NCBI GenBank assembly: GCA_029204225.1
Contig: CM055102.1
Location: forward strand, 4,889,520-4,953,519
DNA length: 64,000 bases
Source: Diphasiastrum complanatum
Taxonomy: Eukaryota > Streptophyta > Lycopodiopsida > Lycopodiales > Lycopodiaceae
Reading direction: 5' to 3'
A model generated the notes under the pieces. The model saw only the letters and a list, made by a program, of their open reading frames with translations. It was not told the origin of the DNA and made no database searches. Shown in pieces: positions 11,761 to 56,619 of the stretch (within the stretch, counting starts at the first letter, position 1; each line of letters opens with the position of its first letter). The position numbers were made by a program, and so were the translations under genes.

Positions 11761-11805
11761 CACGCACTATCCACCGTGCACAAGGCCTAACTTATTTTTC
11801 AACCC

Positions 11806-29673: not shown

Positions 29674-29680
29674 GAGGGGT
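29672..29680 (+). other. Polypurine tract of the family-A copia
   Basis: AAGAGGGGT directly before the 3' LTR. Confidence 0.75.
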
Positions 29681-35859: not shown

Positions 35860-36957
35860 TGTTGGATTTATCTCCTTTACTCTCCTAAATCCTATGTTAA
35901 TCTGCCTCCATTCATGCTGCTGTATTTTACTTGTGTTGTCGTATAGTCTGCATATTTACATGTAAAATAAGACAAGCGAATAAAACGCGACTGTCTGCAT
36001 AAATACAAGTAAATTTCCACAAGCGAAAAATTCAAAATTGTATTTTTTACATGTGATTTGTGACAGGTGAAAAAGACAACACTGCCCTACAAATAAAGGT
36101 GCCCTTATAGAAAAGCAAAGATACCCTGTAAATCAAATTTTAAGGCATTTGTCAGAGTGTCACATTTTTCGCATTTTCACCAATGCTAATTTCACCGAAG
36201 GTTGACATCGCGGCCTTCTCATGCTCATCTTATGCACTGTGCAATCAGATTTGACAACGATAGTAGCCACCCACGATCTCCCACAGACAGCACATCCACT
36301 TTGTACTTTCTTCATCTACACACTTGTAAAATTATGAATATATATTGAATGCCATCTGTGTATTCAGTTTGTGATCATAGCATCAAAACGAAACATCACT
36401 GATAACCAGAGACAGACATAGTAGATGCTTTCACAAATCGATTCTTTCTTCCAAATGTATTGTCAATAATAGGTTTATCACCTTGACAGATTGTGTGATT
36501 AGCTTTGTGGAGCATGCGGTTACGTCCGCTATTGTTTTGTGCTCACCTGCATTATTGACCTGTATATTTCGTTATATTTAATCTGATTACAGCTCTGTTT
36601 GTTATGCGTTCAGATTTGTGTCAATATTGCGATGCTTTCTACATTTTGTCTGACTTTCTTATTGCTTAATCTGGTAGTCTGCGCTTCACGAATTACTATA
36701 AGTCTAGTTGTTCGCGGCTAATATTTAGTCTTGCCTTTTACGACTAATTCGCGATTGATTATCAGTCTAGCACAGTCTAGCTCTTCATGACAAATTATCT
36801 TTCTGATGTTTTTGATGTTTAATGTTTGGGTATGTAATCAGATCGAACATGATTTCTATCAGTAGCATTCTGTTCGTGTCTGATAGGCATAGTCATGCTT
36901 AGGTAAAGAGTAAGATAACTTATTCCGTTGTGCACAAAACACCCCTCTTTTTCAACA
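35860..36957 (+). repeat. Family-A copia LTR (first of a tandem pair)
   Basis: TGTTGGATTTATCTCC to CTTTTTCAACA, 1098 bp, followed at once by a perfect primer site. It is therefore a 5' LTR. Confidence 0.9.
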
Positions 36958-36969
36958 TGGTATCAGAGC
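36958..36969 (+). other. tRNA-iMet primer site, family A
   Basis: Perfect TGGTATCAGAGC directly after the LTR. The leader after it (ATTTTCTGTAGCCTAATAAG) recurs at 39680. Confidence 0.9.
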
Positions 36970-37139
36970 TATTTTCTGTAGCCTAATAAGCTTCCATAGT
37001 AACAAGACTCTACTAGCCGATAGAGTAATTGTCACACGACAATCAGAGCTTCGGGCTCAGGCATGTCCATTATTGACCCACTATTTGACAGCGAATCAAA
37101 CAAAAATGTTGTTGCTACCTAGCAACAAGTCCCATGAGT

Positions 37140-38570
37140 GGTTCATCAGTCGATTCCTCCTAGAAGATCAAGCTGAGTGTGCACACAGCCCACAAGGTAT
37201 ACTCTTGAGTTTGCATGTCTCTTGATACAAGAACCAACAATAGTCGAAGAGGTAGTCAGCCAACCAGACTCTGATCTTTGGAGAGAAGCTATGGACAGAG
37301 AGTATTCCTCTCTGATCAAGAACCAGACATGGTCACTAGTCGAAGCTTCTATTGGCTGCAACATCATTGATGCAAATGGATCTTCAAGATCAAATATAAT
37401 GCCAATGGAGCAATTGATCGAAGGAAGGCAAGACTAGTAGCACGAGGATTCACTCAGATCCCAACGTCGACTATAGTGAGACTTTTAGTCCTGTAGTCAA
37501 ACATTTGTCGATCTGAGCACTCCTATCATATGCTACAGCTGCCGACCTCAAAGTGCATCAACTTGATGTGAAAACAGCTTATCTGAATGGAGTTATACAA
37601 GAAGACATCTACATGATCTAGACCTAAGGATACATTTTGGAAGGTATGAAAAATCATGTCTGTAAACTCCATAAGGCACTCTACGGCTTGAAACAGTCTG
37701 CCAAAGCTTGGTTTCAGAGGATCAACACATTTCTCATCGAACAAGGTTTCAACCAAGCACTGCTGACTGCAATGTGTATTCCAAGTTGGTGCAGCAATCC
37801 TTCATTATCATAATCTTATATGTGGATGATACGTTGCTTTTCAGCAACAATACCAATTTGGTCAAGGATTCTAAGCAGATGCTATTTTCAGAGTTCGACA
37901 TGACTGATCTGGATGAAGCTCACTTCTGTCTAGGCATTCAGATCCACAGAGACAGAGCGAGATGACTGATCTATATCACTCAACAAAGGTATCTTCACAA
38001 TGTTCTTAGCAGATACAATCTAATGAATTGTAAATTAGCTCACTCACCGATGGATCCAGGCCTGCATTTGTTGAAGGACCAATGTCCCCAGACCAAGCAA
38101 GAAGAGGAGCAGATGAGAGAGTATCCTTATCGATCGATACTTGGATCTCTCATGTACGCAATGGTCTGTACAAGACCTGACATCTCTTTTACAGTAAGCT
38201 AACTCAGCCAATATATGGCTAATCTTGGCATTACCCATTGGAAGGCTCTCATAAGAGTCATGAGGTATATTCGGGCTACCATGGACCAGTGCATCTGCTA
38301 TGGAGAAGGCAACAACAACAATCTTCATCAGCTCAGTAGATATTCTGATGCAAACTGGGGAGGAGATGTAGACAATTGTAACTCCACATCTGGATTTACA
38401 TTCTTCTTCAACGGCGGTCCTATCTCATGGAACAGTCGTAAGCAAACCTCTATCGCTCTTTCTTCTATAGAAGTAGAATAAATTGTTGCTTCCCAATCTA
38501 TTAAAGGAGTGTTTTGGTTGAGAAATTTACTGTCAGACATTAGTTTGTATCAGTACAACCCCACAATTAT
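37140..38570 (+). pseudogene. Family-A copia reverse transcriptase and RNase H, truncated at both ends
   Basis: The leader is joined at about 37140 straight to reverse transcriptase, so gag, protease and integrase are deleted. Visible motifs: LWREAMDREYSSLIKNQTW, TWSLVEA, then in shifting frames [51 protein letters not shown] (the YVDD box near 37820), MTDLDEAHFCLGIQI and RNase H pieces (YSDANWGGDVDN, ISWNSRKQTSIAL). It breaks off near 38570, where it is fused to base 73 of the LTR. Stops and frameshifts prevent function. Confidence 0.88.
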
Positions 38571-39666
38571 ATTGTGTTGTCATCTACATATTTGCATGTA
38601 AAATAAGACAGACGAATAAAACGAGACTATCTGCATAAATACAAGTAAATTTCAATAGGCAAATAAAAGGCAAAAAGGACGATACTGAATTTTTTACACG
38701 TGATTTGTGACAAGCGAAAAAGATGACACTGCCCTGCAAATGCTAAAGGTGCCCTTATAGAAAAACGAAGGTACCATGTAAATCAGTTATTAAGGCATTT
38801 GTCAGAGTGTTGCATTTTTTGCATTTTCACCAATGCTAATTTTAGCGAAGGTCGTCGCGACCTTCTCACGCTCATCCCATGCACTGTGCAATCAGATTTG
38901 ACAACGGCAGTAGCCACCCACGATCTCCCACAGACAGCACATCCACTTTGTACTTTCTTCATCTAGACACCTTTCAAATTGTGTATATATATTGAGTGCC
39001 ATCTGTGTATTCAGTGTGTGAGCATAGCATCAGAATGAAACATCAGTGATAATCAGAGACAGACATAGTAGATGCTTTCGCGCATCAATTTTTTCTTCCA
39101 GATGTATTGTCAGTAATAGGTTTATCACCTTGACAGATTGTGTCATTAGCTTTGTGGAGCATGCGGTTACGTCTGCTATTGTTTTGTGCTCACCTGCATT
39201 ATTGACCTGTATATTTTGTTATACTTAATCTGATTACAGCTCTGTTTGTTCTGCGTTCAGATTTGTGTCAATATTGCAATTCTTTCTACATTCTGTCTGA
39301 CTTTCTTATTGCTTAATCTAGTAGTCTGCTCTTCCCGAATTATTATTAGTCTAGCTGTTTGCGACTAATATTTAGTCTTGCCTTTTGCGACTAATTCGTA
39401 ACTGATTATCAGTCTAGATCAGTCTAGCTCTTCGCGATAAATTATCTTTTTGATGTCTTTGATGCTTAATGTTTGGCTACGTAATTAGATCAAACGTGAT
39501 TTCTATCACTAACGTTCTGTTCGTATCTGATAGGCGTAGTCATGCTTAGAAAAAGAGTAAGATAACTTATTCCCCTACGCACGAATGCTTTCCTTTCGAG
39601 TTCGCTTCTTTTCGTCTTCCTTTCTTTTCGAGCTATCCTCGTTTCTCACACCCCTCTTTCCCAACA
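38571..39666 (+). repeat. Family-A copia LTR (second), 5' end deleted
   Basis: It begins at TGTGTTGTC, which corresponds to 35932 in the first LTR; about 72 bases of LTR, the polypurine tract and the end of RNase H are lost in one deletion. It ends CCCTCTTTCCCAACA and is followed by a primer site, so it acts as 3' LTR of one unit and 5' LTR of the next. Confidence 0.88.
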
Positions 39667-39678
39667 TGGTATCAGAGC
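39667..39678 (+). other. tRNA-iMet primer site after the second LTR
   Basis: Perfect TGGTATCAGAGC. The leader that follows matches the one at 36971, proving a second internal region starts here. Confidence 0.9.
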
Positions 39679-39822
39679 TATTTTTTGTAGCCTGATAGGC
39701 TTCCACAGTAACAAGACTCTACTAGTCGATAGAGTAATTGTCTTTTTGTTCTATAATTTGGCATCAGATTTTCATACTTAAGTCACTGATAGTTATTCCT
39801 ATCACCTAGACTAGTCTTCCGC

Positions 39823-39921
39823 ATGGATTCCCAAGGGAAAGCCAGTCATATCATGTGTAGGAAAAAGCCACGAGCTTCTACAAGAAACTGTTTCACGATG
39901 GATTGCAAGACAAATTTCATG
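39823..39921 (+). pseudogene. Start of family-A gag, interrupted (piece 1)
   Basis: The frame opens MDSQGKASHIM and runs to TNFM at 39921, where the minus-strand family-C copia is inserted. The next piece begins at 43782 (see there). That this is the true start of the same gag is inferred from the matching TCATG on both sides. Confidence 0.5.
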
Positions 39922-39928
39922 AATCCTT

Positions 39929-40057
39929 TGCAAATCTTTTCGAGTCGGTCACGAATAGAAATGTTTCGAGTTAGTGTTCATTTCTTTCTCATCCTTTGTC
40001 AAGTAAACTGTGCGCTTTGTTGGTAGAATCAAGATCTGTCTAATCAGTTGTTCTACA
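39929..40057 (-). repeat. Family-C 3' LTR
   Basis: About 129 bp, very short for copia, paired with 43648-43776. Starts TGCAAATC on the plus strand and ends TTCTACA. Confidence 0.8.
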
Positions 40058-40068
40058 ACTCCCTCTCA
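40058..40068 (-). other. Polypurine tract, family C
   Basis: The minus strand reads GAGAGGGAGT directly before the 3' LTR. Confidence 0.65.
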
Positions 40069-41713
40069 AAGTGATAGTTGGATTAACTCCAATCTTCTTC
40101 GCTGCTTCTCCAACAAAGCTTTACTTAGTGGCTTTGTAAAGATATCAGCTGTAATTTCCTTTGTGGGTATGAAGACTGTCTTCAATATTTTCTTCTTGAC
40201 TAAGTCCCGAATCACATGATACGTGATAGCTATGTGCTTTGTTTTCGAGTGAAATACAGGATCTTTTGTAAGATAGATTGCTGAAGTGTTATCCATTAAC
40301 AAGACATAAGGTTCAGAACTAGATTCATCAAATCCTTCTAGTATCTATTAAAACCAGATTAGCTCGTTTGCCATCTTGGCTGCTGCTACATATTTCGCTT
40401 CATAGGAAGATTGAGCTACTGTTGTTTGCTTCTTGCTAATCCAGAGTATGGCTGCGCTAGATGCTAGAGTACAACCTCCTGAAATACTTTTGTTATCATC
40501 CTTCATGGATGCCTAGCTTGCGTCACTGTAAGATTCGATGTGAAATCAAGCTTTCTTCAAATAACACAGTCCATAGTCTTTCGTTTTCTGGAGATATTGT
40601 AGTATTCTCTTTGCCAACTTCCAATGCAATGATCCTGGGTTTTGATTATATTGGCTCAGTCTATATACTACAAATGCTATATCAGGTCTGTTGTTGTCTG
40701 CTAGATATAACAATGATCCAATAAGCTTACGATAGGGTGTTTGGCCATTCGTTCCTCATCTTCGAGAGTCTGCAGACAATCTGCCTTATTCAGTATGCAC
40801 ACCTTTGCATTTGAGCATGTTGAAGTCTTCAATGATCTTTTGAGTGTATTTTTGTTGGTGAAGATACAGCTTACCACCTTCAAAGTCTCTCACAATCTGC
40901 AAGCCTAGATAGATTTTAGCTTCTCCTAGGTCAATGATCTCAAATATTTCAGAAATGTCTCTTTTGACATCTAAAATTAACTTATCTCTTCTTGAGAAGA
41001 TAAGCGTGTCATCAATGTAAACAGCTAGAATGATTATTTCATTTTGGACATGATTGATATAGACATTTAGCAAATAGAGATTTGAAGCCTATGGAACATG
41101 GTGCTTCGTCCTTCTTTCTATACCATTGTCTTGCTGCTTGTTTGAGACCATAAATGTTTTTGTTCATGTGACATCCGTATTCTGAACATTCTTGGCTTAC
41201 AAAACCAAGTGGTTGGTCCATGAAGAAGTCTTCTTCCAATTCTGCGTGCAAGAAAGTAGTTTTCTCATCCACAATATGGATTTGCAGATCATGAGACACT
41301 GCATACATGAATAACAAGCGAATTGATGTATGTTTGACTACTAGTGAGAAAGTATCAGTGTAGTCAATCCCATACTTCTGTGAAAATCCTTTAGCAACCA
41401 ACCTTGTCTTGTATTTGATGTTTTCTCCATCAGGACCTGTTTTGATCTTATAGATCCACTTGCACTTAAGTGGTTTTCTGCCATCAAGTATAGGTGCAAG
41501 TGTCCATTCATTGTTCTTGTACATGGATGACATTTTGCCCTCCATTGCCTGAATCCAGCGATCTTTATCCGGTCCATCTACAACTTCCTCGAATGTTTGA
41601 GGTTCATCAGAGAATCCACAAAATTCGATGGTTGTATCAAAAATATCTTGACCATATCTTTCTAGTGGTTTTTGTTGTTTATCAGATCTTCTCACAGGTG
41701 GTTTCAAGTTCAA
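40066..41713 (-). pseudogene. Family-C copia reverse transcriptase and RNase H
   Basis: 41713-41039 reads WIQAMEGKMSSMYKNNEWTL, CKWIYKIKTGPDG, YTDTFSLVVKHTSI, EKTTFLHAELEEDFFM and YGLKQAARQWY. 41073-40786 has the YIDDTLIF form of the catalytic box (Ile for Val) and DLGEAKIYLGLQI. RNase H follows in pieces; 40302-40066 ends with MDNTSAIYL, HSKTKHIAI and ITADIFTKPL at a natural stop. At least two frameshifts or stops lie between 40786 and 40302. Confidence 0.88.
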
Positions 41714-41942
41714 TTCTGATTAGAGCTTTTCTGCTGGAATTTGAACTAGCGATTTGAGTCTGTCAGGCACTCGATCTTGACTTCCCTCTGAATCTGGTAG
41801 CTCTCTTTTATCTTCTGCTTGTTTTTCTTCTGTTGTTGTTGATAGCTCATAATAAATTTTGAGAATCTCATAGCTGACTAGATCACTGTCTGCTATGTAT
41901 TTTGTCTCATCAAATTTAACATCTCAAACAACTTTTATCTTG

Positions 41943-42620
41943 CTAGTTTCGGGTACATAAACCTGATAATATCAATGAATGTATTCTGAATCCTGCTAGA
42001 CAACCTTGTTTTGTCTTTTCATCGAGTTTCTTTCTCAACTTATCTGGTATGTGCATATACACTATGCATCCAAATGTTTGAACATGTGCAAGATTTGGCT
42101 TAAATTTCCACCATATCTCATGAGGAGTTTTATCCGGTATTCGAGATTTCAGAATATGATTTTGAAGATAATTTGATGTAGCCACTACTTCTGTCCACAA
42201 TTGTTTTGGTGCTTTCGCATGAGCCATCATACACCTTGCAGCTTCCATCAGTGTACAATTTTTTCGTTCAGCTATTCCATTGTGCTGAGGTGTGTAAGAT
42301 GCAGTCTTTGTGTGCATAATACCTCGATCAATATAGTAAGCTTTGAATTCTTTGAAAATGCAATCTATGCAAATTTGCTTCAGTTTATTGCATGTCCGCT
42401 TCTCAGCCCAATTCGTATACTCAACAAATTTCTTGAAAGCTTCAGATTTAGTACGAATAAAGTATACTACAGTGAACTTGCTGAAGTCATCAATAAACGT
42501 AATGAAGTACTTTGCATCACCCAACGACAATACTCTGAATGGTCCACAAATATCGGAATGCACAATTTCAAGTACCTTAGTTGCTTTATAGACATCCTTA
42601 CTAAAAGATGTTCTAGTCAT
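41943..42620 (-). pseudogene. Family-C copia integrase
   Basis: The frame reads LEIVHSDICGPF, FIDDFSKFTVVYF, IKCK-like CNKLKQICIDC, YTPQHNGIAERKNCTLMEAARCM and FGCIVYMHIPDK. The three acidic positions of the D,D(35)E core can be placed except for a poorly kept middle region. It is separated from reverse transcriptase by broken sequence (41940-41720). Confidence 0.87.
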
Positions 42621-42751
42621 CTTGCCTTTAAGACAAGATTCGCAAGTAGTTCAAATATCTCTACTTTCGACTCCTTGAATTCTCTGACTTTTGTTGGCTA
42701 GGTACAAGGCTTCCATGTTCATGTAACATAGCCTTTTTTGCCATAGTACAT

Positions 42752-43621
42752 CTATCCCTGAGTTTGATTGACTTGTTCAATTCTTGTTTGAATTTTCAGG
42801 TGATCTGAATTTCCTTCTCTGTTGTCTTTAGCAACCAGGTTATCAGAATCTTTCTCGAACAGTTTACAAGAGTTCTTTGTGAAGGTTACTGACATGCCTG
42901 TATCAACTATCTTAGCAACAGATAAAAGACCTTTATCAAGAGTAGGGACATAGAGAACTTCCTCCAGTTTCTTGTCTCCCTGATTCGTGTCCAGCCATAA
43001 TACACCAGTTCCATCAACCACGTGTTTAGAACCGTCTCCAAGTATAATGAATTTCGAATAGTTCTTCTTGTACTCAGACAAAATTTGTTTCAAGGAAACA
43101 AAATGTGAGGTGGCTCCCGAATCAAGTACTACTTCTCAAATTGAATTAGATGAACAACATAGATCAGTACTAGCATAAGCTACTGAATTCCTTGTTGCCC
43201 TGTCTTCTGCCGCTCTAGAGCATTCTGCTTTGTCTTCGACATAGTTTGAATATGAAGATTTGCTTCGATTCTACTCCTTTTTGTTTTTGAAATTCTGATA
43301 ACAGTCTATTGCTGCATGACCTCATTTATGAAAATGAATGCATTCGATTTTTGGACTTAGCCAACACTTTACTTCTGTGTGACCTAATCTTATGCATCTG
43401 TTGCAGATATTCTTATCACCAGAATTCTTCTGTTGTTTTCCAGATTGTTGTTCATTAGTCTTAGACTCATTCTTCTTAGACGACTCCCTCTTAAACTTAG
43501 AATTCTTAGAAGATTTATTATTCTGAGTAAATAGAGCATTTTTAGAGTCACCATTTTGTTCATAGCGTTCACGAGCTTCTACTTCCTCTTTAACTCCATC
43601 TACTGCCTTTTGAAGTGTCAT
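42752..43621 (-). pseudogene. Family-C copia zinc knuckle and protease
   Basis: 43621-43322 carries a Lys/Asn/Ser-rich region and the knuckle CNRCIRLGHTEVKC. A frame break follows. LDSGATSHF (protease site) is at about 43120, and 43093-42752 continues FIILGDGSKHVVDGTG and VLYVPTLDKGLLSVA. N-terminal gag is deleted. Confidence 0.85.
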
Positions 43622-43647
43622 ATTTAAATAGACGCTCTATTTTCAAG

Positions 43648-43776
43648 GTCAAATCTTTTCGAGTTGGTCACAAATAGAAATGTTTTGAGTTCGCGTTCGT
43701 TTCTTTCTCATCCTTTGTCAAGTAAATTACACGCTTTGTTGGTAGAATCAAGATCTGTCTGATCAGTTGTTCTACA
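43648..43776 (-). repeat. Family-C 5' LTR
   Basis: Matches 39929-40057 with a handful of changes. No primer site adjoins it. Confidence 0.8.
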
Positions 43777-43781
43777 TCATG

Positions 43782-44213
43782 GACAAGCTTGATGGAGCCA
43801 ATTACCATCTATGGAAATTTAAGACGAAAACAGTGCTAATGGCTAAATAATTGTATGATGTTGTTATAGGTGAAGAAGGAAAACCCAAAGCTGACGATGC
43901 AGCAATCGCTAGATGAAAGCTGAAGGATGGCAAAGCATTCGCGCTGATCATCCTCAACATTTCGGATACTCAGATCGGCCATGTATCCGAAGTCCAGACA
44001 TCCAAAGAAGTCTGGGACATCTTGAGCACATTATACGAAGTGAGAGATATAGCTTCCAAGCTACATCTCAAGAAGAAATTTTACTCCCTTGAAATGGCAA
44101 ATGGTGAATTCTTTGCAGAATCACATCAACCAATTCAAGAACCTATTGAAACAAATGGCCGCTGTCGGATCTGTCATAGACAATCAAGATGCAGTGATGA
44201 AACTGCTTACAAG
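43782..44213 (+). pseudogene. Family-A gag, piece 2
   Basis: After ATG at 43781 (shared TCATG) the frame reads DKLDGANYHLWKFKTKTVLMAK, a typical copia gag start, then GKAFALIILNISD, SKEVWDILSTLYEV, and in other frames KKKFYSLEMANGE and MKLLT. It ends at ACAAG (44209-44213) where family B is inserted. The continuation is at 51409. Confidence 0.8.
44209..44213. repeat. Left target duplication of family B
   Basis: ACAAG, identical to 51409-51413. Confidence 0.85.
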
Positions 44214-44612
44214 TGTCAGAAATGGTGAACTCCTGCAACTTTGCCGCAACACAAACACAAAGCGAAAGTCAAACGAGAATAATTCGTGAAAGTCAACGTC
44301 CCTTGACTCGAAGCACGAACAATTTGCGAATCCTTCATGAATCATAAACATACCTCTAGGACCGCTAACCGCAAAGGGTTGCAAACTGAAAAGATACAAA
44401 AGAAACGAAATGAGTGAAAGCAAACGAAAGAAATGAAACAAACGAAGGAAAATCTTTCGCGCTGCCAGCTGGCAGCTCAACGAGCTTGGAGTCGTAGACT
44501 TCACGCCCAGCTGAAACGAGTGCAACAATGGAGGAAAACTGATTAGTTGATTAACATTAACTAGTTTTGTGATTCTGCGTTTAGCTATCTTGTAAACTCC
44601 ACACAGTGTAAA

Positions 44613-44618
44613 TATAAA
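44613..44618 (+). promoter_or_regulatory. LTR TATA box, family B
   Basis: AATATAAACTATC recurs in the 3' LTR near 47286 and, with a GTATAAACG form, near 52999, which suggests it is the retrotransposon promoter. Confidence 0.6.
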
Positions 44619-44667
44619 CTATCCTTTTTGGATCATAAATACAAGAGAAAAAAATAGACAAAATACT

Positions 44668-44860
<193 letters not shown>

Positions 44861-45208
44861 GTAGCGACTAGTGCAGAAAAGACAAATACTAGAAACAAAA
44901 AGAGTTGTGCATGAAAGTCTGCTAATGAGCAGAACACAATGAAAGAGCAGAGTGTCATTTCGCCAACGAGCGAGACACTGACGATCTTGCTCTAAAAATC
45001 ATACTCATAATACAATTGCTCTATTTTTGTGCTTCTCCTTGTCTTGTGTCATTTGTCTTGATTGCTAGAATAGAATGTGTTCTGTGATGTGTAGTCGCGT
45101 GTCTATGATCCTGTGAAGCTTCTGTGCAAAAGAAAATTCAAAGACACAAAATCGTTTACGAATACGAAAAAGAAAACGAAAAAGAAAAATGGTTGCTCTT
45201 TCGCGACA

Positions 45209-45220
45209 TGGTATTAGAGC
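45209..45220 (+). other. Primer binding site, family B
   Basis: TGGTATTAGAGC directly after the LTR, one base from the initiator-Met site. Confidence 0.85.
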
Positions 45221-45272
45221 CCACAGGTTATCACTACTGATATTTGAGTAGTGATTCTCTAGATAACACAAT

Positions 45273-45790
45273 ATGGCTACAACAATCCAGACAAGAGTAG
45301 AAATCAGTCTTGATGGCGCAAATTACAGAATCTGGAAATTCGAAATCAAAACACTTCTGAAGGGCGAAGGCATCTGGTCGGTGACCGAATTCTCAGAGAT
45401 GCAGCCACCAGAGGGAGACCCCAGGAGAGCTGAATGGATCAGAAAAGATGAGTGCGCAATGGCGATCATCGTTTCGTCCATAAATGAAAATCTACTCATG
45501 TAGATTGAAGACTGCGAAAGCAGCCATGCAACATGGGAAAGATTAAGGCAGAAGTATGAAGTGAGGACTGCAGCTTCAGTCATGCACCTTCACAATCAGC
45601 TGCAATCCATATGATGGGATGGCAACCAGTTGGATCAGCACGTTGAGAAGATCAGAACAATCTTCGCTCAGCTCGCTACATCAGGACAGGAGCACCAAGT
45701 CCCAGCACCACAGTAGCTGATGTACTTCATGAAATCTCTACCAACGTCCTATCAGCCGCTGAGAATGAAATCTTCATGAAGTAGGCTAAA
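45273..45790 (+). pseudogene. Family-B copia gag
   Basis: Starts MATTIQTRVEISLDGANYRIWKF, then ECAMAIIVSSINENLL, a TAG at 45501, and on in the same frame: SSHATWERLRQKYEVR, SVMHLHNQLQSI, HVEKIRTIFAQLA, YFMKSLPTSYQPL. Two further stops occur. It then passes directly into reverse transcriptase sequence. Confidence 0.85.
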
Positions 45791-46969
45791 GGTTTTGAAG
45801 ACCCCGACAATCGACAATATGTCTGTCGATTGTAGAGATGCATCTATGGTCTAAAATAGGCATCATGAGCCTGGTACGGTCTTCTGAAGTCTCTAGACTT
45901 CAACCCTACTCAACCAGACTCTAATGTCTACATAAAAAGAGTAGAAAATATTTTGTGATACTGACTATCTTTGTGGATGATTCCGTAATGATAGAAAATT
46001 CCTTGATGCTGATAAAAGACACAAAGAGTCAGATTTCTGAAAGCTATGAAATCACAGATCTTGGAGAAGCAACAAAATGCCTTGGGCTAGAGATCAGAAG
46101 AGATCGAACAAAGGGCAAAATGCACTTGAGTCAGTCAGAATACGCTAGAAATGTGCTAAAGTAGTACCACATGATGGACTGCAAAGAAAAGGCCACACCA
46201 ATGATAGCTGGAGCCAAGCTCACGAAGCAGGATTGCCCAAAAATGGAAGAGAAAGAACAAAAGATGGCAAGTATACCCTACCAAAACTTAATTGATAGTC
46301 TGATGTACCTCACAATTTGTAATAGACCGGATGTGGCTTTCTCTGTTTACACCTTGAGCCAATTTCTCTTCCAATCCTGGCCTGGCACATTGGCAAATGG
46401 CAAAACGAATCCTACAGTATCTGAAGGGTACCCAGTAAATGAGATTAACCTACAGAGCTGAAAACAAAGAAGAAAGATTCGAGCTGCACCCTATAGTGAT
46501 GCGAGTTGGGTGAGCTGCAAAGATACAAACAAGTCCATAACTTGAGGATGTACCATAGCATGCGGAGCTGCAATCAGCTGGATATGCAAAAAGCAAACCT
46601 CGGTGGCTCAATCCTCTTGCGAAGCTGAATATGTCACAGCTTCAAAGGTGGCGAATGAGGTAGTGTGGCTGCAGATGATGCTAGAGGCAATCAGGATACC
46701 ACAAGAAGGGCCAAGCACGATGTTGATGGACTCTCAGAGTGCCATCTATCTGTCCCAGGATCTTGTGTTCCATTCAAAGACAAAACACATACCTCTGAAG
46801 TACCATCACATTCAAGATTTGATCTCAAAAGGAGAGCTCCAGGTCCAGTATATAAAATCAGAAGACATGATTGCAGATCTGCTCACAAAACTGCTCAACA
46901 AGCCACTCTTTGCCAAACAAAGAAAGGCAATTGGATTAAACGTGCAAAGCTACAAGGTTCAAGAGGAAG
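45791..46969 (+). pseudogene. Family-B copia reverse transcriptase (C-terminal half) and RNase H
   Basis: The junction after gag reads GFEDPDNRQYVC, then a broken YGLK-AS-AWY, LTIFVDDSVMI (catalytic box with FVDD), ITDLGEATKCLGLEI, YQNLIDSLMYLTICNRPDVAF, a broken stretch and RNase H from 46603: AQSSCEAEYV, MDSQSAIYLSQD, HSKTKHIPL and DMIADLLTKLL. The last codons run into the LTR. Several stops are present. Confidence 0.87.
46961..46969 (+). other. Polypurine tract, family B
   Basis: AAGAGGAAG directly before the 3' LTR; the other copy has AAGAGGGAG at 52672-52680. Confidence 0.75.
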
Positions 46970-47355
46970 TGTCAGAAATGGTGAACTCCTGCAACTTTTC
47001 CGCAACACGAATATGAAACGAAAGTCGAATGAGAACAATTCGCGAAAGTCAACGTCCCTTGACTAGATACGGAAGAAACGAAATGAGCGAAAGCAAACGA
47101 AAAAAACGAAACAAATGAAGGGGAATCTTTCACACTGCCAGCTGGCAGTTCAACGGGCTTGGAGTCGTAGACTTCATGCGCAGCTGAAACGAGTGCAACG
47201 ACGGAGAGTAACTAATTAGTTGATTAACATTAACTAGTCTTGTGATTCTACGTTTAGCTATCTTGTAGACTCCACATAGTGGAGATATAAACTATCATTT
47301 CTGGATCATAAATACAAAGAGAAAAAAAGAATAGACAAAAATATTGTAAGAGACA
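46970..47355 (+). repeat. Family-B 3' LTR, part 1
   Basis: TGTCAGAAATGG... up to GTAAGAGACA, where element D is inserted. The second part is 51052-51408. Confidence 0.9.
47351..47355. repeat. Left target duplication of element D
   Basis: AGACA, identical to 51047-51051. Confidence 0.88.
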
Positions 47356-48619
47356 TGTGATGCCACAAAATTGTTAAATGTTGAATAAGAACATAAATAT
47401 GGCACAATTTACTCGAAATTGAAGATATGAGCTGGATAAATATAAATCATGAAGAGGCCTAAGTCATTTTTTGGGAATATATCTCCTAAGTACTTGTCTT
47501 ATAATAAAGGGCAAGACCTTTAAAAGGAAAGACATTGTCTTGGATAGCCTTTACTACGTCGTCCACACAAAACAACTAGATATGAAAAGACATGTTAAAC
47601 TAGAGTAATTTTAACTCTTGGTTAAATATACCTCTTATGGTATAATTGAACGTATACTTAGTCTAATTGTTAACTAGACCCTTTCGCGGGAGCGATGCAC
47701 ATGTTGTTTTAGAGGTGTGTTTGTTCGTCCCGTAGAACATATATTGATCTCACACTTCAGTCTCGAGCATCGAGAGAGAAGAGTTTATGCATATGTAAGA
47801 GATTGAAGAAGTGAATAGAGTGCTGAGAGTTATTCTCCCTTATCTCTGTTCTTCGCACTGTTGAGTGTGAGTGATCCTGAGTCTACTAGCAATCTCTAAC
47901 GCATTTCATGAATTACTCTCTGATCAGACAAACTCTCTAGCACATTACAGTCGTTGGCTGTGTATCCGTAAAAGATGCTCTAAGGAACTGTCTTAAAATC
48001 ATTTTATTCGTCTGTCATGAATACTTTCTTTTCGGCACTCGAATAACGACTATCTTTGGTACAGTCTAGCATGATCATTGAATAAAACTGTATGTATACA
48101 TATGAGATGACAGTCCATGTCTGAAGAATCGAGTTCTTGATCTGTGTTCCTGATTGTAATTGACATAAGTTTCTAACGTGCTCTAAAACTATTCGTGTTC
48201 TTTGACCATTAAATTGGAGTTACGTTGTTGAGGACTTCTGTCTAGAAATGAACAGTTTGCGAACGCGATTAATTAATTGTCTGCACAACCACGCATACAT
48301 CAAACATTTCTTGACTCTCTATTGACACCTTAATCAGCCAGAGTGTAGTACTATTGTACTACTCTGATAAAATCTCATCTGTAGAACGCGTTTCATTCGA
48401 TTTGATAGAGGCCATATTGTTGTTTAGAAATTATTAACATTACATTCCTCAAACACAAGTAATACTGGTTACTTTCTAATGTTTGTCGACAACCAGAATA
48501 ACACTCGAAACCATTTGTCATAAATTGTACCAAATACATAACTTTCTAACAATGTCCCTTGTGGGAACGACATTATTTACTACAAAATCTATATTAACCT
48601 TGTTGGTATAGTATGACAT
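47356..48619 (+). repeat. Element D 5' LTR
   Basis: TGTGATGCCACAAAATTG to GTATAGTATGACA. It shares the phrases GGAACTGTCTTAAAATCATT and GTTGTTGAGGACTTCTGT-like with the 7380-8598 LTR (CTTAAAACTCATTG, TTGTTGAGGACAGATTG), so they are distant relatives. Confidence 0.93.
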
Positions 48620-48631
48620 ATACCAATGTTT

Positions 48632-48650
48632 GGCGCCATTGTCGGGGATA
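48632..48650 (+). other. tRNA-Asp-type primer binding site, element D
   Basis: TGGCGCCATTGTCGGGGAT, two bases away from the complement of plant tRNA-Asp's 3' end. It starts 12 bases after the LTR, as at 8611. Confidence 0.82.
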
Positions 48651-49770
48651 GCTTAAGAAAGTTATAAGAAATCTGACACATCCATCTCCATCTCTAGTCT
48701 ATGTCAGATAGAGAATCCCGACTAGAACAATACCGTAAGCTTATAGACGACTTTCTCTGGTTATGGGCCAAGCTCTCTATCGAGCAGAAATGATTTCTCT
48801 GTTGGGGCATAATCTAGGGGAAATTCTAGGTCGTGCCTTTCGGATTAGCAGAGTTATACATACTTTGGCTATGTATGCTCTTGAATATATTTGAATCAAA
48901 GAATTTTAATTTTTGAGGAACGAAGACAATAAGTGACATTTTTGGAAGTGAAAGTCACAGTTTCAACTGTACAAACCACAAGTTGTTGCGGATCTAGGTG
49001 CTTTTGACGATGCAGGGTTGCTGATCAATGTAAATATGGCCTATCCTGAACTCTTCAGTCTTTATGTGGATTGCGACCGAAATCTTGCAGATTATTTTGC
49101 GGGAATTTGATACAATCTGCAAGACAGAAGGAAGTCAATTCGCTATAAGCAATTTTGTACATATTCCTTTTGGCAGTTCGGAACTTTCGCGGCAAAGACA
49201 TTGTTTTTCATTCAGAATCTTTATGTTAAAGCAATTTCATAAGATTTTCAGCTCGCTATAGTAAAGAAATCACACTACGAAGTGGTTCAGATGTAGATAG
49301 AAAGTTAACTCAGGAGCTGTTTGATAGAACTTTGCTCCCGGTTAAGCTTCAAGAATTCGACAACCTCCCAATTGGCCGTTATACGAAATCCAAAGAAGAC
49401 TTGTTGTTGATGAGGCTCAACAAAACTTGGAGTTCGCTCAAAAGCTACAATGATGAATTGAATTTTTTGTAAATATTTATTCTTACCTATGTCGTGGTGA
49501 TGATTACATGTGATGCTGAATCCAGATCTTTGAAGTTTGATGAGGTTTTGAAGATTGATTCCAGTTCTTATCAACAATTCAAAGATCAAATCAAATCAAC
49601 CTATTTAATAGAAACAACAAAGACACATATTCTCTAAGATGAAGAAATATCTAAAGGACGAAACCTATGAAGAAATATCTTTTCACCTTAACGAAAATCT
49701 GAAGAATAAGGATGTTTCGCGAATGATACTCGAAATGAAGATGATATGTTCATGAGGACGTTTCACATTT

Positions 49771-49781
49771 GAGAAAGGGGA
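49771..49781 (+). other. Polypurine tract, element D
   Basis: GAGAAAGGGGA directly precedes the 3' LTR. Confidence 0.8.
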
Positions 49782-49783
49782 TA

Positions 49784-51046
49784 TGTGATGCCACAAAATT
49801 GTTAAATGTTAAATATCAACATAAATATGGCACGATTTACTCGAAAATGAAGATATGAGCTGGATAAATATAAATCATGAAGAGGCCTAGGTCATTTTTT
49901 GGGAATATATCTCCTAAGTATTTGCCTTATAATAAAGGACAAGACCTTTAAAAGGAAAGACATTGCCTTGGACAGCCTTTACTAGGTCGTCCACACGAAA
50001 CGACTAGATATGAAAAGACATGTTAAACTAGAGTAATTTTAACTCTTGGTTAGATATACCTCTTATGGTATAATTGAATGTATACTTAGTCTAATTGTTA
50101 ACTAGACCCTTTCGCGGGAGCGAGGCACCTGTTGTTTTAGAGGTGTGTTTGTTCGTCCCGTAGAACATATATTGATCTCACACTTCAGTCTCGAGCATCG
50201 AGAGAGAAGAGTTTATGCATATGTAAGAGGTTGAAGAAGTGAATAGAGTGCTGAGAGTTATTCTCCTTTATATCTGTTCTCCGCATTGTTGAGTGTGATT
50301 GATCCTGAGTCTACTAGCAATCTCTAACGCATTTCATGAATTACTCTCTGATCAGACAAACTCTCTAGCGCATTACAGTCGTTTGTTGTGTATCCGTAAA
50401 ACATGCTCTAAGGAACTGTCTTAAAATCATTTTATTCATCTGTCGTGAATACTTTCTTTTTGGCACTCGAATAACGACTATCTTTGGTACAGTCTAGCAC
50501 GATCATTGAATAAAACTATATGTATACATATGAGATGATAGTCCCTGCCTGAAGAATTGAGTCCTTGATCTGTGTTCCTGATTGTAATTGACATAAGTTT
50601 CTAACGTGCTCTGAAACTATTCGTGTTCTTTAACCATTAAATTGGAGTTATGTTGTTGAGGACTTCTGTCTAGAAATGAACAGTTCGCAAACACGATTAA
50701 TTAATTGTCTACACAACCACAAATACATCAAACATTTCTTGACTCTCTGTTGACACCTTAATCAGTCGAAGTGTAGTACTGTTGTACTACTCTGATAACA
50801 TCTCATCTGTAGAACGCGTTTCATTCGATTTGATAGAGGCCAGATTGCTGTTCTGAAATTATTAACATTACATTCCTCAAACACAAGTAATACTGGTTAC
50901 TTTCTAATGTCTGTCGACAACCAAAATAACACTTGAAACCATTTGTCATAAATTGTACCAAATGCATAACTTTCTAACGCTATTTCCTATGGGAACGACA
51001 TTATTTACTACAAAATCTATATTAACCTTGTTGGTATAGTACGACA
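49784..51046 (+). repeat. Element D 3' LTR
   Basis: TGTGATGCCACAAAATTG to GTATAGTACGACA, the near-identical partner of 47356-48619. Confidence 0.93.
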
Positions 51047-51051
51047 AGACA
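51047..51051. repeat. Right target duplication of element D
   Basis: AGACA. Confidence 0.88.
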
Positions 51052-51408
51052 GAGAGAGAGACATAGCGACTAGAGCAAAAAAGAAAAATACTAGAAACAA
51101 AAAGAGTTGTGCATGAAAGTTTGCCAACAAGCAGAACACAACAAAAGAGCAGAGTGTCATTCCGCTAACGAGCGAGACACTGACGATCTCGCTCTAAAAA
51201 TCATACTCATTGCTTTATTTTTGTGCTTCTCCTTGTCTTGCATCATTTGTCTTGATTGCTAGAATAGAATGTGTTTTGTGCTGTGTAGTCGCGTGTCTAG
51301 GATCCTGTGAAGCTTCTGCACAAAAGAATATTCAACGACACAAAATCGTTCTCGAATACAAAAACGAAAATGAAAATGAAAAAGAAAAACAGTTTCGCTT
51401 TCGCGACA
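51052..51408 (+). repeat. Family-B 3' LTR, part 2
   Basis: GAGAGAGAGACATAGCGACT... to TTTCGCGACA, continuing 46970-47355. Confidence 0.9.
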
Positions 51409-52080
51409 ACAAGCTTGCCAAGCTCATACAACAGTTGGGTGATGATCATCACGACACATCCAGAACTGACTCTTTCAAGAGTCATTACAATGTTGTTGTA
51501 GAAAGACACACGGAGGAACGAAGCCTCAAGTTTCTCAGCTGATTCTCACGCCTTGTACACCAACAAGAGCATGACTAAGTAGAAGAAGAAGAAAGGCCCG
51601 AAGCAATCAAAGCAAGACCAGAAACCAGCACAACACAAAGAACAATCGAATTTGTAGAAAAAGAAGAAGCTGTTCTGCAGATACTGCAAACAAAACAACC
51701 ACGAGATTCAAGACTGTCGAATATTACAAGCTAAGCACAACATCAAGGGACAGTCGAATCAAGTGGCCAATGTAGCTACAAATGCTCCACAGCCCATTCA
51801 AGAAGCGGATCATGATGCCTTCATGACCAGCCATCAAGGAGCATCCAGCGATAGTTCTTGGTTTCTGGATTCCGGTGCCACTCAACATATGACCAGCCTC
51901 ATTAGTTGTTTTGAGTCCTATACACCCTACAGTACCAACAAATATGTTCACCTTGGCAATAATAGCACACAAGCTATTAAAGGTGAAGGTACTATAAGAT
52001 TGAGCTTTGCAAATGATCAATATAGGCTACTTTCTAAAGTCCTGTATGTACCCAACTTATCTACGAATCTGTTTACGCAT
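51409..52080 (+). pseudogene. Family-A gag end, zinc knuckle and protease (piece 3)
   Basis: Starts at the ACAAG duplication and completes the gag phrase TSLPSSYNSWVM and HPELTLSRVIT. A Lys/Gln-rich region with stops follows, then the knuckle CRYCKQNNHEIQDC, then from 51763 VANVATNAPQPIQ, WFLDSGATQHMT (protease site), YVHLGNNSTQAIKGEGT and LSKVLYVPNLSTNLF to about 52080. It ends abruptly at a junction with family-B sequence. Confidence 0.85.
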
Positions 52081-52680
52081 TGATCCAATTCTGTTCCAAT
52101 CCTGGTCTAGCACATTGGCAAAAGGCCAAACGAATCCTATAGTATCTGAAGGGTACCCAGAATATTGGATTAACCTACAGAGCTAGAAACGAGGAGAAAA
52201 GATTTGACTTGCATCACTACAGTGATGCGAGCTGGGTGAGCTGAAAGGATGACAACAAGTCCATTATTGGAGGATATACAATAGCATGCGGAGCTGCAAT
52301 CAGCTGGATATGCAAAAAGCAAACCCTGGTAGCTCAATCCTCTTGCGAAGCTGAGTATGTCACAGTCTCAAAAGTGGCGAATGCGGTAGTGTGGTTGTGG
52401 ATGATGTTGGAGGCAATTGGGATACCACAAGAGGGGCCAAGCATGATGATGATGGACTCCCAGAGTGCCATCTATCTATCCCAGGATCCTGTCTTCCATT
52501 CAAATGTGAAGTACCATCACATTTGAGATTTGATCTCGAAAGGAGAGCTCCAGGTACAGTTCATAGAATCAGAAAGTATGATTGCAGATCTCTTCACGAA
52601 ACCGCCCGACAAGCCACTCTTTGCCAAGCAAAGAGAGACAATTGGATTGAACGAACAAAGTTGCAAGGTTCAAGAGGGAG
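52081..52680 (+). pseudogene. Second family-B RNase H end
   Basis: Reads, in mixed frames, WHIGKRPNES-like, KSIIGGYTIACGAAISWICKKQT, AQSSCEAEYVT, MMMDSQSAIYLSQDPVFHS, IEHESMIADLFTKPPD-like and ends with AAGAGGGAG before the LTR. It closely follows 46390-46969. The left end joins family-A protease at 52081 without an LTR, so its 5' part was lost in a recombination or deletion. Confidence 0.85.
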
Positions 52681-53395
52681 TGTCAGAAATGGTGAACTCC
52701 TGCAACTTTGTCGCAGCACAAACAAGACACGAAGGTCGAACGAGAACAATTCGCGATAGTCAATGTGTCTTTGACTCAAAGCACGAACGATTTGCGCAAA
52801 ATGGATGCAAAACAAAAACTACAAAAAAAATGAAGACACACAAAGAGAAATCTTACGAGCTGTCAGCTGGCAGCTCAACGGGCTTCATGCCTAGCTGAAA
52901 TGAATAGCAATGACGGAGACTAACTAACTAGTTGATTAGCGTTAACTAGTCTTGTGATTCTATGTTTAGCTAACTTGTAAACTCCACACAGTGGAGGTAT
53001 AAACGAACCTCTCTGGATCATAACTATAAGAAGAGAGATAGTGAATAAAGAGATCTATAAGAAACAAAGAGAGACGTAGCGAATAGAGTAAGAAAGCAAA
53101 AATATCATAGCTGTGCATGAAAGTCTGCCAACGAGCAGAACACAACGAAAGAGCAGAGAATCAATCCGCCAACGAGCGAGACACTGACGATCTCGCTCTA
53201 AAACCAGACTGACAAAATAGTCGCTCTATTTCGTGTATCTCTTGGCCTTGTGCTGTGTCTCTTGATTGTTAGAATAAAATATGTTCTGTGATGCGTAGTC
53301 GAGAGCTTCCACACGAAAAGAAATTTGAAAGACAGAAAATTGTTCGCGAATCCGAAGAGAGGATGAACACGAAACAAGAAAAAGCTTCCGTGACA
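52681..53395 (+). repeat. Family-B 3' LTR (second copy)
   Basis: TGTCAGAAATGG to AGCTTCCGTGACA, 715 bp. No AG expansion. It directly abuts the minus-strand integrase of 53396. Confidence 0.88.
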
Positions 53396-54160
53396 TATCC
53401 AACCATAATCCCTTTAATAGAATTAGGATCATCTCTTTTCCTTGTTTCCAAGGGCACATGAACAAAGCAAGCACAACCAAAAACTCTAAGGTGATCTACC
53501 TTAGGTTTCTTCTTAAACAAGACTTCAAAAGGTGATTTTCCAGCAAGTGCATTGTGAGGTAATCTATTACACAAATAATTTGCACAATTTATAGCTTCAT
53601 CCCAATATTCTATAGGCAAAGAAGCTTCAACTTGGATTGCTTTAGCAGATTCACATAAAGATCTATTTTTCCTCTCAACAACTCCATTTTGAGATGGAGA
53701 ATAAGCATAAGAAGACTCTCTCTTTATTCCTTCACCTTCACAATATTCATGAAACTTGTTGGAGATGTATTCACCTCCTCCATCACATCTTAAAGCTTTA
53801 ACTTTGAAAGAAAATTGTTTCTCAACATAAGCTTTGAAGATTAGGAAGTGATTAAAAACCACAGCCTTTGAAGAAAGTAGATATAACCAAGTATATCTTG
53901 TAAAGTCATCAATAAAGGTGACAAAACATGTTGCACCACCAATTCCGAATGTATAAGCTCCAAAGGATGAGTAGTCTTTATAAAAGACTTTTGATATGGC
54001 TTTCTGTGTGATTTTGCAATAGCACAAGCCTCACAAGGCTTGAAATTTTTGGAAAGAGATATTGGAAGACAATTGCCTTCACTTTCTTGACCATAGAAGA
54101 CATAGATTTAAAGTTAGGATGCCCCAACCTTCTATGCCACAACTCCTCCTTAGATAACAA
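53396..54160 (-). pseudogene. Family-E copia pre-integrase and integrase
   Basis: 54160-53978 reads LWHRRLGHPNFKSM. From about 54027 to 53396 the integrase core reads GGATCFVTFIDDFTRYTW, KALRCDGGGEYISNKF, YSPSQNGVVERKNRSL, YLCNRLPHNALAGKSPFE, VFGCACFVHVPLE, KRDDPNSIKGIMVGY, then is cut at the family-B LTR. The protease and zinc knuckle between here and gag are deleted. One frameshift lies near 54000. Confidence 0.87.
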
Positions 54161-54197
54161 AGCAATTTCATAAAAAAAATTGCATTCTCATAAGAAT

Positions 54198-54801
54198 TCA
54201 ACTTAAAAATTCCACCACATCTAGATCCATCAGCCTAGATTCTTTATAAATAAGAATTCCTTGAAGAGTTTCTAGATTAGGCAACTCCTCCTTAATGGCA
54301 AAAGACTGAACAAGATTATCATAGTCATCTCTCAAGCCATTTAAAATGACTTGAACTAGCTCATCTTGGTTAATAGTAACACCAACACAGGAAAGCTCTC
54401 TATGTAAATCTTTAACTCTCAGAACATAGTTTGATGCACTCTCTTTCACTTCTTTGGAAACTTTGGAAAATCAAATTCCTAAGAGTGAGTATTCTAGAAG
54501 TATTCTTTGCTTCACAGATGGACTTAAGTGCATCCCAAGCTTCTTTGGCTGTAGTGCAAGATCCTATCTCTCTCAAAATTTCATTAGATACATTCATCTT
54601 AATGAAATGTAGAGCCATTCTAGCTCTCTTCCTATACTTAGGAATTTCAACCTGTGCTTGAGGCTCCTCCTCAACACCAAGCACAATGTCCATAACATCC
54701 TGGAGTATCAAAATAGACTCCATTCTGAACTTCCAAATTGAGTAATTAGAAGTATTTAGTCTTTCATTTGCTTCTAAAAGATATCCCCCCAGAGGTGCCA
54801 T
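54198..54801 (-). pseudogene. Family-E copia gag
   Basis: 54801 down to about 54430 reads MAPLGGYLLEANERL, NYSIWKFRMESIL, MALHFIKMNVSNEIL and LTLRNLIFQSFQ; after a frameshift 54449-54198 reads YVLRVKDLHRELSCVG and DELVQVILNGL. A relative of the 5552-6091 gag. Its start ATG is preceded on the minus strand by a long leader up to the primer site at 55559-55570. Confidence 0.87.
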
Positions 54802-55558
54802 TTAGATGAAGACTTCTTAGTTATTGGACTGCAATATGTTTGAGCTGTTCCAATCAGACTTTAAGTTGCTGCTCTCTTTCACTATAGGTATTTTCAAGGA
54901 TATTCTACCTTCCTATGTGAAACACTTGCAACTATATTTGAGAAGGATCTCAAATATTCCATAAGAGAAGATTATCTAGATCAGACACACAAAGTGAATT
55001 GTGACACTTTGGCAAGTTTGAATCCTACTTTTGGCACATGTGAAATGCTTCAAAAGAAAATACTATTGACACTCAGAAGGCTCAAAGGGTGCTCAATTAC
55101 TTCAAACTAGTCTTGATCTTCAGTTTCTTGTGAAGGATGCTCAAAACAATGGATTCAGAACAAAGCAAGGTTGAATCAAATCAAAATGCTGTCACTCGGA
55201 TTTTGGACCTATCCCTATCCTCTTTAAGAGCTTATAACTCTTGATAGACACATCAGCTTGATTTGGTTTCAATCTCTATGAAAAATACAGATTATAAGCT
55301 TTCGATCAAGCTATAACACCACTATTTTTGGATCTTCAAGCAAGGAGATAGAAGGGACTAAAAATCTCTGATTTTTACACGTACGGAATTCCAGAATTCC
55401 GTACTAACACTATTCAGGTCTAAAAATTCAGTTCCACTCTGATTTGATCCAAATACACTTCAGAGAAAGGTGAGAAAAAGTGCTAAACTACTTTTTTGCT
55501 TGAATTCGCTCTCAATTTCTTGTACAATCAGAGATGTTAGCATGCAAAGCTTAATTTG
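54802..55558 (-). other. Family-E leader (non-coding)
   Basis: The stretch between primer site and gag start on the minus strand; no other content recognised. Confidence 0.55.
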
Positions 55559-55570
55559 GGTCTGATACCA
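55559..55570 (-). other. Primer binding site, family E
   Basis: The minus strand reads TGGTATCAGACC immediately after the LTR, one base from the initiator-Met site TGGTATCAGAGC. Confidence 0.75.
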
Positions 55571-56619
55571 TGACAAAATTTCCAAAATTCACATGTGTGG
55601 GGAATGTCCACAAGTATGATGGATCTAATTAAGCTTTGTGATTAGCACAGTAACCTGATTCTAAATTGATTACAAGATCTAGCTCAGAAGATATGGCTTA
55701 ACTACAATCTAGCATGCTAAACATCAGAATATGATAGCAATAAATCAATAATGAGCAAAAGTACCAGATATCAGTGTATTAGCATTAGCCTCAACATGAG
55801 TTAGAGAGAGAAAGATAGAGAGATAACAAGCAAAACTTGTGTGGATCCAAAATGGCATGAGATAGCTACAAAGCTATGGTTCGTCATCACAAAATATGAG
55901 GAGAGCTACACAAATTTATGGAGTTTGAGGTAGCTCGAGGTAGAACCATATCCATCCATCATTTAATGACATCTAAAGTGAAAACTAGAGTCTATGTAAC
56001 ATTTGTCACTTCTCATGCATGAAACTCTACCAACTTTTTCCAAGTGTGCTAGTTCTAACTAGAAATGTACAAATCATCATGCATGTGTCCATTACACTTT
56101 GTGCATGCCTTGCATGTCACCATGGATCACTTACAATTAATGCATGTGAATTGCCACGAGTTTCTACAAGCATAATTTTGCTAATTCTATGTCTACAAAC
56201 TATATGCAAGTTGTATCATCATTCTAGATATGACATATTCATGTAGCTCGTGTTCTATCTAGGCCAAACTTGGCATTTTGCATTTATGAACAACATACTT
56301 AGAGAGAGAGAGAGAGAGATGCCCTATTCCCACACTTTTACACTATATATAATAGGTCCTTGATCTATTTGGATGTGCTTGTCCAAGCTTATCAACATTT
56401 AGAAAGTTCTAGATCTATTCTACCAATAGACTAGATTCAATGCATCTCAATTTTCAAATTTGAATTGGTTCAGACTTGACCTGCCTAGTTTTCCCACACT
56501 TTCCAAAATGGTAATTCAAATAAACTTAGGCCTAAACAACTTTATAAAGTTTATCTCTAAGCCGAAATTGCTAGTTGAGCTAAACATGATAAATCTTAAC
56601 TAGTTGACAATTTCTCACA
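55571..56619 (-). repeat. Copia LTR shared between two minus-strand internal regions
   Basis: The left border is set by the primer site, the right border by a polypurine tract (GAAGAGGGAGTG on the minus strand at about 56619-56632). TGACAAAATTT to ATTTCTCACA, about 1049 bp, with imperfect terminal inversion. It is the 3' LTR of the 56617-57365 unit and the 5' LTR of the 53396-55570 unit. Confidence 0.65.

What the first reader, a model, noticed from the sequence alone, without database searches (positions are those of the whole stretch)
38571..52080. Insertion stack: family-A gag split twice, one intruder itself split
The family-A gag reads through once the intruders are removed: ...TNFM|DKLDGANYHLW across family C (TCATG on both sides), and MKLLTS|LPSSYNSWVM across family B (perfect ACAAG). 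Family B's 3' LTR is then split by element D (perfect AGACA). So family A is oldest, family B later, element D last; family C also postdates A. Few windows give a relative order this clean from both the target duplications and a restored host reading frame.
Basis: seen in the sequence. Interest (0 to 1): 0.72.

Follow-up and report, generated by a model that had tools for sequence, protein, structure and literature searches.

The report
Ordinary nest of LTR retrotransposons
Old jumping genes here were interrupted by younger ones, one inside another, so their order of arrival can be read from the sequence; the case is clean but of a very common kind.

Summary
The nest is real. Elements C (39922-43776) and B1 (44214-51408) sit in the gag region of a copia-type element, A; D (47356-51046) sits in B1's 3' LTR. 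All three have perfect 5-base flanking duplications. Across B1 the A gag pieces fall on consecutive Pfam PF14223 positions, 2-97, 98-131 and 132-171, though the last two score below the curated cut-off. Two other B-family LTRs in the window have both flanks of the D site without D. D's LTR divergence (K2P 0.057) is below B1's (0.127), as nesting predicts. The order A, then B1, then D stands. C postdates A on weaker evidence; C against B1 is undetermined.

Corrections: gag is in phase at both junctions but not open (one frameshift, five stops). C's ends are non-canonical if its duplication is TCATG. A is the second unit of an LTR-IN-LTR-IN arrangement starting at 35860. Near 52067 A is fused to a second B-family fragment. 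A's age cannot be read from an LTR pair. One study alone compared 4,126 nested pairs. The host genome search did not complete (9 of 9 tries), so intact A copies were not examined.

The parts
35860..36957 (+). Family A LTR1 (5' LTR of the first unit of the array)
   Evidence: Starts TGTTGG at 35860, ends AACA directly before the PBS at 36958; 87.9% identical to LTR2 over 1,019 aligned bases.
36958..38571 (+). Family A unit 1 internal part: PBS and leader, then RT-RNase H; no gag or integrase recognised by reading the frames
   Evidence: RVT_2 match E 3.7e-13; frames; leader 36939-37033 matches 39648-39742.
38572..39666 (+). Family A LTR2, first ~70 bases missing; preceded by unit 1's RNase H and followed by unit 2's PBS
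39667..39921 (+). Family A unit 2 PBS, leader and N-terminal gag piece (ATG at 39823)
   Evidence: PBS-like TGGTATCAGAGC at 39667; open to the C insertion.
39917..39921 (+). Target duplication TCATG, left of C
39922..43776 (-). Element C, copia-type, minus strand: short LTRs (~127-137 b), protease region, integrase, RT; start of gag, leader and PBS not found
   Evidence: Pol_BBD 2.6e-15, SH3_retrovirus 1.9e-11, RVT_2 6e-37 (integrase core rve only 0.00049, below cut-off); LTR copies 39931-40057 and 43650-43776, 91% identical; no PBS-like site by pattern.
43777..43781 (+). Target duplication TCATG, right of C
43782..44213 (+). Family A gag, middle piece (frameshift near 44105-44115, two stops)
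   Evidence: PF14223 positions 2-97 (E 4.2e-18) and 98-131 (E 9.7e-05, 22.3 bits, below the curated 27).
44209..44213 (+). Target duplication ACAAG, left of B1
44214..51408 (+). Element B1, copia-type, gag-to-RT internal deletion, with D inside its 3' LTR
   Evidence: 5' LTR 44214-45208, PBS 45209, 3' LTR 46970-47355 + 51052-51408; gag PF14223 E 2.5e-21 and RVT_2 E 6.4e-12.
47351..47355 (+). Target duplication AGACA, left of D
47356..51046 (+). Element D, LTRs 47356-48618 and 49784-51046 (1,263 b each, 94.5%), 1,165-b internal part without a recognised domain
   Evidence: PBS-like TGGCGCCATTGTCGGGG at 48631; 0 of 3 peptides reach a Pfam cut-off.
51047..51051 (+). Target duplication AGACA, right of D
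51409..51413 (+). Target duplication ACAAG, right of B1
51409..52067 (+). Family A gag C-terminal piece (three stops) and start of the protease region
   Evidence: PF14223 positions 132-171 (E 0.014, 15.3 bits, below the curated 27); Pol_BBD E 1.5e-21.
52068..53395 (+). B2: 3' fragment of a second family-B copy (RNase H end plus LTR), fused to A
   Evidence: 81% match of 52068-53047 to 46342-47333; junction sequences; its 154-aa RNase H peptide had no Pfam match.
53396..57367 (-). Element E, minus strand: RT-RNase H (57367-56620, by reading), one LTR (56619-55571), PBS (55570), gag, integrase cut at 53396; another shared-LTR arrangement

Best explanation
This is a three-layer nest of LTR retrotransposons. 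A family-A copia-type array was present first. B1 inserted into its gag, making an ACAAG duplication, and C inserted near the start of gag on the other strand, making TCATG (or TCA). Later D inserted into a GA-rich stretch of B1's 3' LTR, making AGACA. Each step is ordinary integrase-mediated insertion of a double-stranded cDNA at a staggered cut. Shown: duplications, in-phase junctions, consecutive Pfam positions across B1, two in-window LTRs without D, lower LTR divergence of D than of B1. Inferred: that the mechanism was integrase, and that the junctions at 38571, about 52067 and 53396 are deletions or recombinations. The order of C relative to B1 and D is not determined.
For: Perfect 5-base duplications 3 of 3, chance about 0.0015 per fixed pair of borders. 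Gag pieces fall on consecutive PF14223 positions 2-97, 98-131, 132-171. B1's 5' LTR and B2's LTR carry both flanks of the D site without D (2 of 2 aligned). K2P D 0.057 [0.044-0.072] against B1 0.127 [0.098-0.157]; without CpG columns 0.043 against 0.108. No N in the window.
Against: C: borders non-canonical with TCATG; no homology support left of it. Two of the three gag matches are below the curated cut-off (22.3 and 15.3 bits against 27), and the third piece alone does not beat shuffles against B's gag (89 of 500 reach its score) or E's gag (102 of 1000); its first 29 residues alone match nothing. D's site: in B1's 5' LTR a 188-base GA tract lies at that very place (I left 164 bases of it out of the alignment) and B2 aligns loosely there, so the exact empty base pair is not seen; AGACA lies in GA-rich sequence, where chance matches are likelier. 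A LTR1/LTR2 divergence (0.134) does not differ from B1's and need not date A. No intact A copy was examined.
Confidence: 0.93

Rival explanations
1. C did not insert here by transposition; its junctions come from rearrangement, and TCATG on both sides is chance.
For: Ends are not TG...CA together with a 5-base duplication; the left gag piece has no detected relative; no PBS-like site was found in C and its gag start is missing (frames).
Against: The 5-base match has about 0.0015 chance (before allowing for alternative borders), the frame is in phase (1 in 3), and C's right end begins with TG on its own strand at the end of an LTR copy.
Confidence: 0.08
2. Assembly artefact: the nest is a mis-join of repeats.
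For: The parts are repeats; no duplication was seen at the A-B2 and B2-E junctions, and no reads were available.
Against: No N; perfect duplications, Pfam positions and lower divergence of the inner element would have to arise by accident.
Confidence: 0.03
3. The A part is two separate elements lying head to tail with a deletion between them, not a shared-LTR array.
For: The RNase H end, polypurine tract and first ~70 LTR bases are missing at 38571, so the original border cannot be seen.
Against: One deletion of a few hundred bases, as judged from the related copy at 28711-30676, is enough for the shared-LTR reading; the separate-element reading must also lose unit 1's 3' LTR.
Confidence: 0.3

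Closest known systems
Nested LTR-retrotransposon clusters as analysed by REANNOTATE (PMC2672092; abstract and outline seen) and LTRtype (PMC5379124; passages)
   Same: Younger elements inside older ones, order read from nesting, ages from LTR pairs.
   Different: Nothing in kind; here the order is also checked by gag-model positions and by LTRs of the same family without the inner element.
LTR-IN-LTR-IN and IN-LTR-IN complex elements of LTRtype (PMC5379124 tables)
   Same: One LTR shared between two internal parts, as in A (35860-52067) and E (57367-53396).
   Different: The A array here is also interrupted by later elements and fused to a B-family fragment. In that paper LTR-IN-LTR-IN and IN-LTR-IN number 6 and 1 of 438 (maize chromosome 10, 0-2 Mb) and 11 and 13 of 2,263 (Arabidopsis).
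Nested/original LTR pairs compared for LTR similarity (PMC7251063; passages)
   Same: D in B1 behaves as the majority there: the nested element has the more similar LTRs.
   Different: None; that study reports approximately one fourth of nested elements going the other way.

Membership tests
Ty1/copia-type LTR retrotransposon (A) | Copia-type gag and RT | tested here: met
   PF14223 4.2e-18 in unit 2; RVT_2 3.7e-13 in unit 1.
Ty1/copia-type LTR retrotransposon (A) | LTR pair with 5-base duplication round the whole element | tested here: inconclusive
   Two LTRs seen but the 3' end of unit 2 is lost at about 52067.
Ty1/copia-type LTR retrotransposon (B1) | LTRs TG...CA, 5-base duplication, PBS next to the 5' LTR, copia-type gag and RT | tested here: met
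Ty1/copia-type LTR retrotransposon (B1) | Integrase upstream of RT | tested here: inconclusive
   That part is missing from this copy: gag passes into RT near 45790-45830, so the order cannot be seen in it.
Ty1/copia-type LTR retrotransposon (C) | Protease region, integrase, then RT in that order | tested here: met
   (integrase by SH3_retrovirus 1.9e-11; rve core below cut-off).
Ty1/copia-type LTR retrotransposon (C) | TG...CA ends together with a 5-base duplication | tested here: inconclusive
   Either TG...TT with CATGA or TG...CA with TGA, read on C's strand.
LTR retrotransposon, superfamily open (D) | LTRs TG...CA, 5-base duplication, PBS-like site near the 5' LTR | tested here: met
   that this PBS type is typical of some Ty3/gypsy elements is recalled, not from a call.
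Autonomous LTR retrotransposon (D) | Own gag or pol domain | tested here: not met
   0 of 3 peptides picked by eye from its internal part reach a Pfam cut-off; probably non-autonomous.
Shared-LTR array (LTR-IN-LTR-IN), A | One LTR preceded by the 3' coding end and followed by PBS and leader of the same family | tested here: met
   LTR2 38572-39666; leaders 36939-37033 and 39648-39742 match at 92.6%. The border before LTR2 is deleted, so two separate elements are not excluded.

The most novel reading that the evidence does not exclude
Two shared-LTR arrangements of different copia-type families (A on +, E on -) lie within 22 kb, with family-B copies in or beside them. If this is typical of the genome, it would point to unusually frequent unequal exchange between LTRs here, rather than independent insertion alone, as a main way in which the stack was built.
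Probability: 0.1. Interest if true: 0.35.

Novelty: new member of a known kind. Interest (0 to 1): 0.12.

Why it matters
It is a clean teaching case: nesting, target duplications, gag-profile positions and LTR divergence agree for D in B1 in A. It also shows two limits: the host element's age cannot be read from its LTRs once it may be an array, and an in-phase junction is not an open gene. It changes no general view.

Tried and rejected
Host genome: the genome search 'own' was sent nine times in the same form and never answered, so intact family-A copies, solo LTRs and empty sites elsewhere were not examined. Relatives in public collections: none confirmed in viral contigs (4 pattern matches, 0 confirmed; 3, 0 confirmed) or genome contigs (25, 0 confirmed). 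Those collections are viral and prokaryotic, so this says little. Rfam (gathering threshold) and tRNA scans of the window found nothing. The organism was therefore not identified; that it is a plant is a guess from the element types, recalled and not shown. A first paper search gave one paper, not read further; of the papers listed I looked into three.

Rejected: reading A's age from LTR1/LTR2 (K2P 0.134), because LTR2 may be shared between two units. Rejected: an order of C against B1 from LTR divergence, because C's LTRs give 0.095 or 0.140 depending on the border chosen, with wide intervals [0.041-0.156 and 0.078-0.215] that include B1's 0.127. Rejected: naming a class for D, since no domain was found.
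Full report
Observation. Self-comparison (for 36000-56000, for the whole window) and direct reading show the LTR pairs and borders. D has LTRs at 47356-48618 and 49784-51046. B1 has a 5' LTR at 44214-45208 followed at once by a PBS-like TGGTATTAGAGC (45209), and a 3' LTR from 46970 to 51408 that D splits. C lies on the minus strand between 39922 and 43776, with short LTR copies at 39931-40057 and 43650-43776. The flanking 5-mers are perfect in 3 of 3 cases. Random pairs of places share a 5-mer in 1,442 of 1,000,000 draws over the window and 1,680 of 1,000,000 within the stack.

Continuity of the host gag. I searched the pieces of A's gag apart. The middle piece matches Pfam Retrotran_gag_2 (PF14223) at model positions 2-97 (E 4.2e-18) and, after a frameshift near 44105-44115, 98-131 (E 9.7e-05, 22.3 bits, under the curated 27). 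The piece right of B1 matches 132-171 (E 0.014, 15.3 bits, also under the cut-off, but on exactly the next position); a 29-residue version of it matches nothing. B's own gag covers this place in the model, positions 2-140, and E's gag covers 100-166. Aligned alone, the part just left of B1 beats shuffles against E's gag (0 of 1000 reach its score) and nearly always against B's (5 of 500); the piece right of B1 does not (102 of 1000 and 89 of 500). The profile position, the frame and the duplication carry the argument together. Across C there is no such support: the 33 residues to its left match nothing (317 of 500 shuffles). The frame is in phase at both junctions, but gag has five in-frame stops and one frameshift, so 'reads through' means in phase, not open.

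Empty sites. For D, the window holds two relatives of the target: B1's 5' LTR and the LTR of B2. Both show the two flanks of the D site without D. They are not exact empty sites: B1's 5' LTR carries a 188-base GA tract there (44672-44859), of which I left 164 bases out of the alignment, and B2 aligns loosely at the site.

Ages. K2P: D LTRs 0.057 [0.044-0.072], 1,263 aligned bases; B1 LTRs 0.127 [0.098-0.157], 714 aligned bases with the GA tract and D site left out; C LTRs 0.095 [0.041-0.156] on 126 bases or 0.140 [0.078-0.215] on 135; A LTR1 against LTR2 0.134 [0.110-0.160] on 1,019. With CpG columns dropped: D 0.043, B1 0.108, C 0.048 or 0.099, A 0.105. D is younger than B1, as nesting demands. 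The A value does not separate A from B1 and is not a clean age.

(1) LTR2 (38572-39666) is preceded by A-type RT-RNase H and followed by PBS and gag; an earlier LTR1 (35860-36957, start) has the same PBS and leader (36939-37033 against 39648-39742, 92.6%). So A is an LTR-IN-LTR-IN array, or two head-to-tail elements with a deletion. At 38571 the RNase H end, polypurine tract and first ~70 LTR bases are missing relative to the copy at 28711-30676 and to LTR1; a short TTGTG is shared at the join. (2) At about 52067 A passes into B2, the 3' part of another family-B copy (81% of 52068-53047 to 46342-47333). B2's LTR differs from B1's two LTRs by K2P 0.244 and 0.270, its internal part by 0.154. Whether A and B shared sequence at this join cannot be told, as no other copy of that part of A is in hand. 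(3) B2 ends at 53395 against element E on the minus strand, which has RNase H (by reading, no Pfam run), a polypurine tract, one 1,049-base LTR (56619-55571), PBS and gag in a row: another shared-LTR arrangement.

How it works. Each layer is explained by ordinary LTR-retrotransposon insertion with a staggered cut; the junctions at 38571, 52067 and 53396 by deletion or recombination. Integrase action and the deletions are inferred.

What is known. Resolving the order of nested elements is a stated purpose of REANNOTATE (PMC2672092, abstract and outline), and LTRtype annotates nested insertions (PMC5379124, passages); the latter lists 438 elements in five layers in 2 Mb of maize chromosome 10. 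PMC7251063 (passages) compares 4,126 nested/original pairs in fifteen plant species and finds about a quarter with LTR divergence against the nesting order. The finding is a sound and ordinary example.

Limits.

Noticed in passing
55571-57367 (minus strand): Element E shows RNase H, polypurine tract, one LTR, PBS and gag in a row: another shared-LTR arrangement of a different family close to the A array.
   Followed up: partly
52068-53395: A second family-B 3' fragment in the same orientation, fused to A's protease region and ending against E.
   Followed up: partly
44672-44859: 188-base perfect GA tract in B1's 5' LTR at the place where the 3' LTR holds D; the 3' LTR and B2 have only short GA stretches there.
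   Followed up: partly
28711-30740: Related A copy: RT-RNase H 87.6% identical to unit 1 but LTR only 72.6% identical over aligned bases, so the LTR has diverged much more than the coding part.
   Followed up: no
45790-45830: B1 passes from gag directly into RT; the end of gag, protease, integrase and first part of RT are missing.
   Followed up: no
11802-12046: Direct repeat of 127 bases offset by 118, 96% identical.
   Followed up: no
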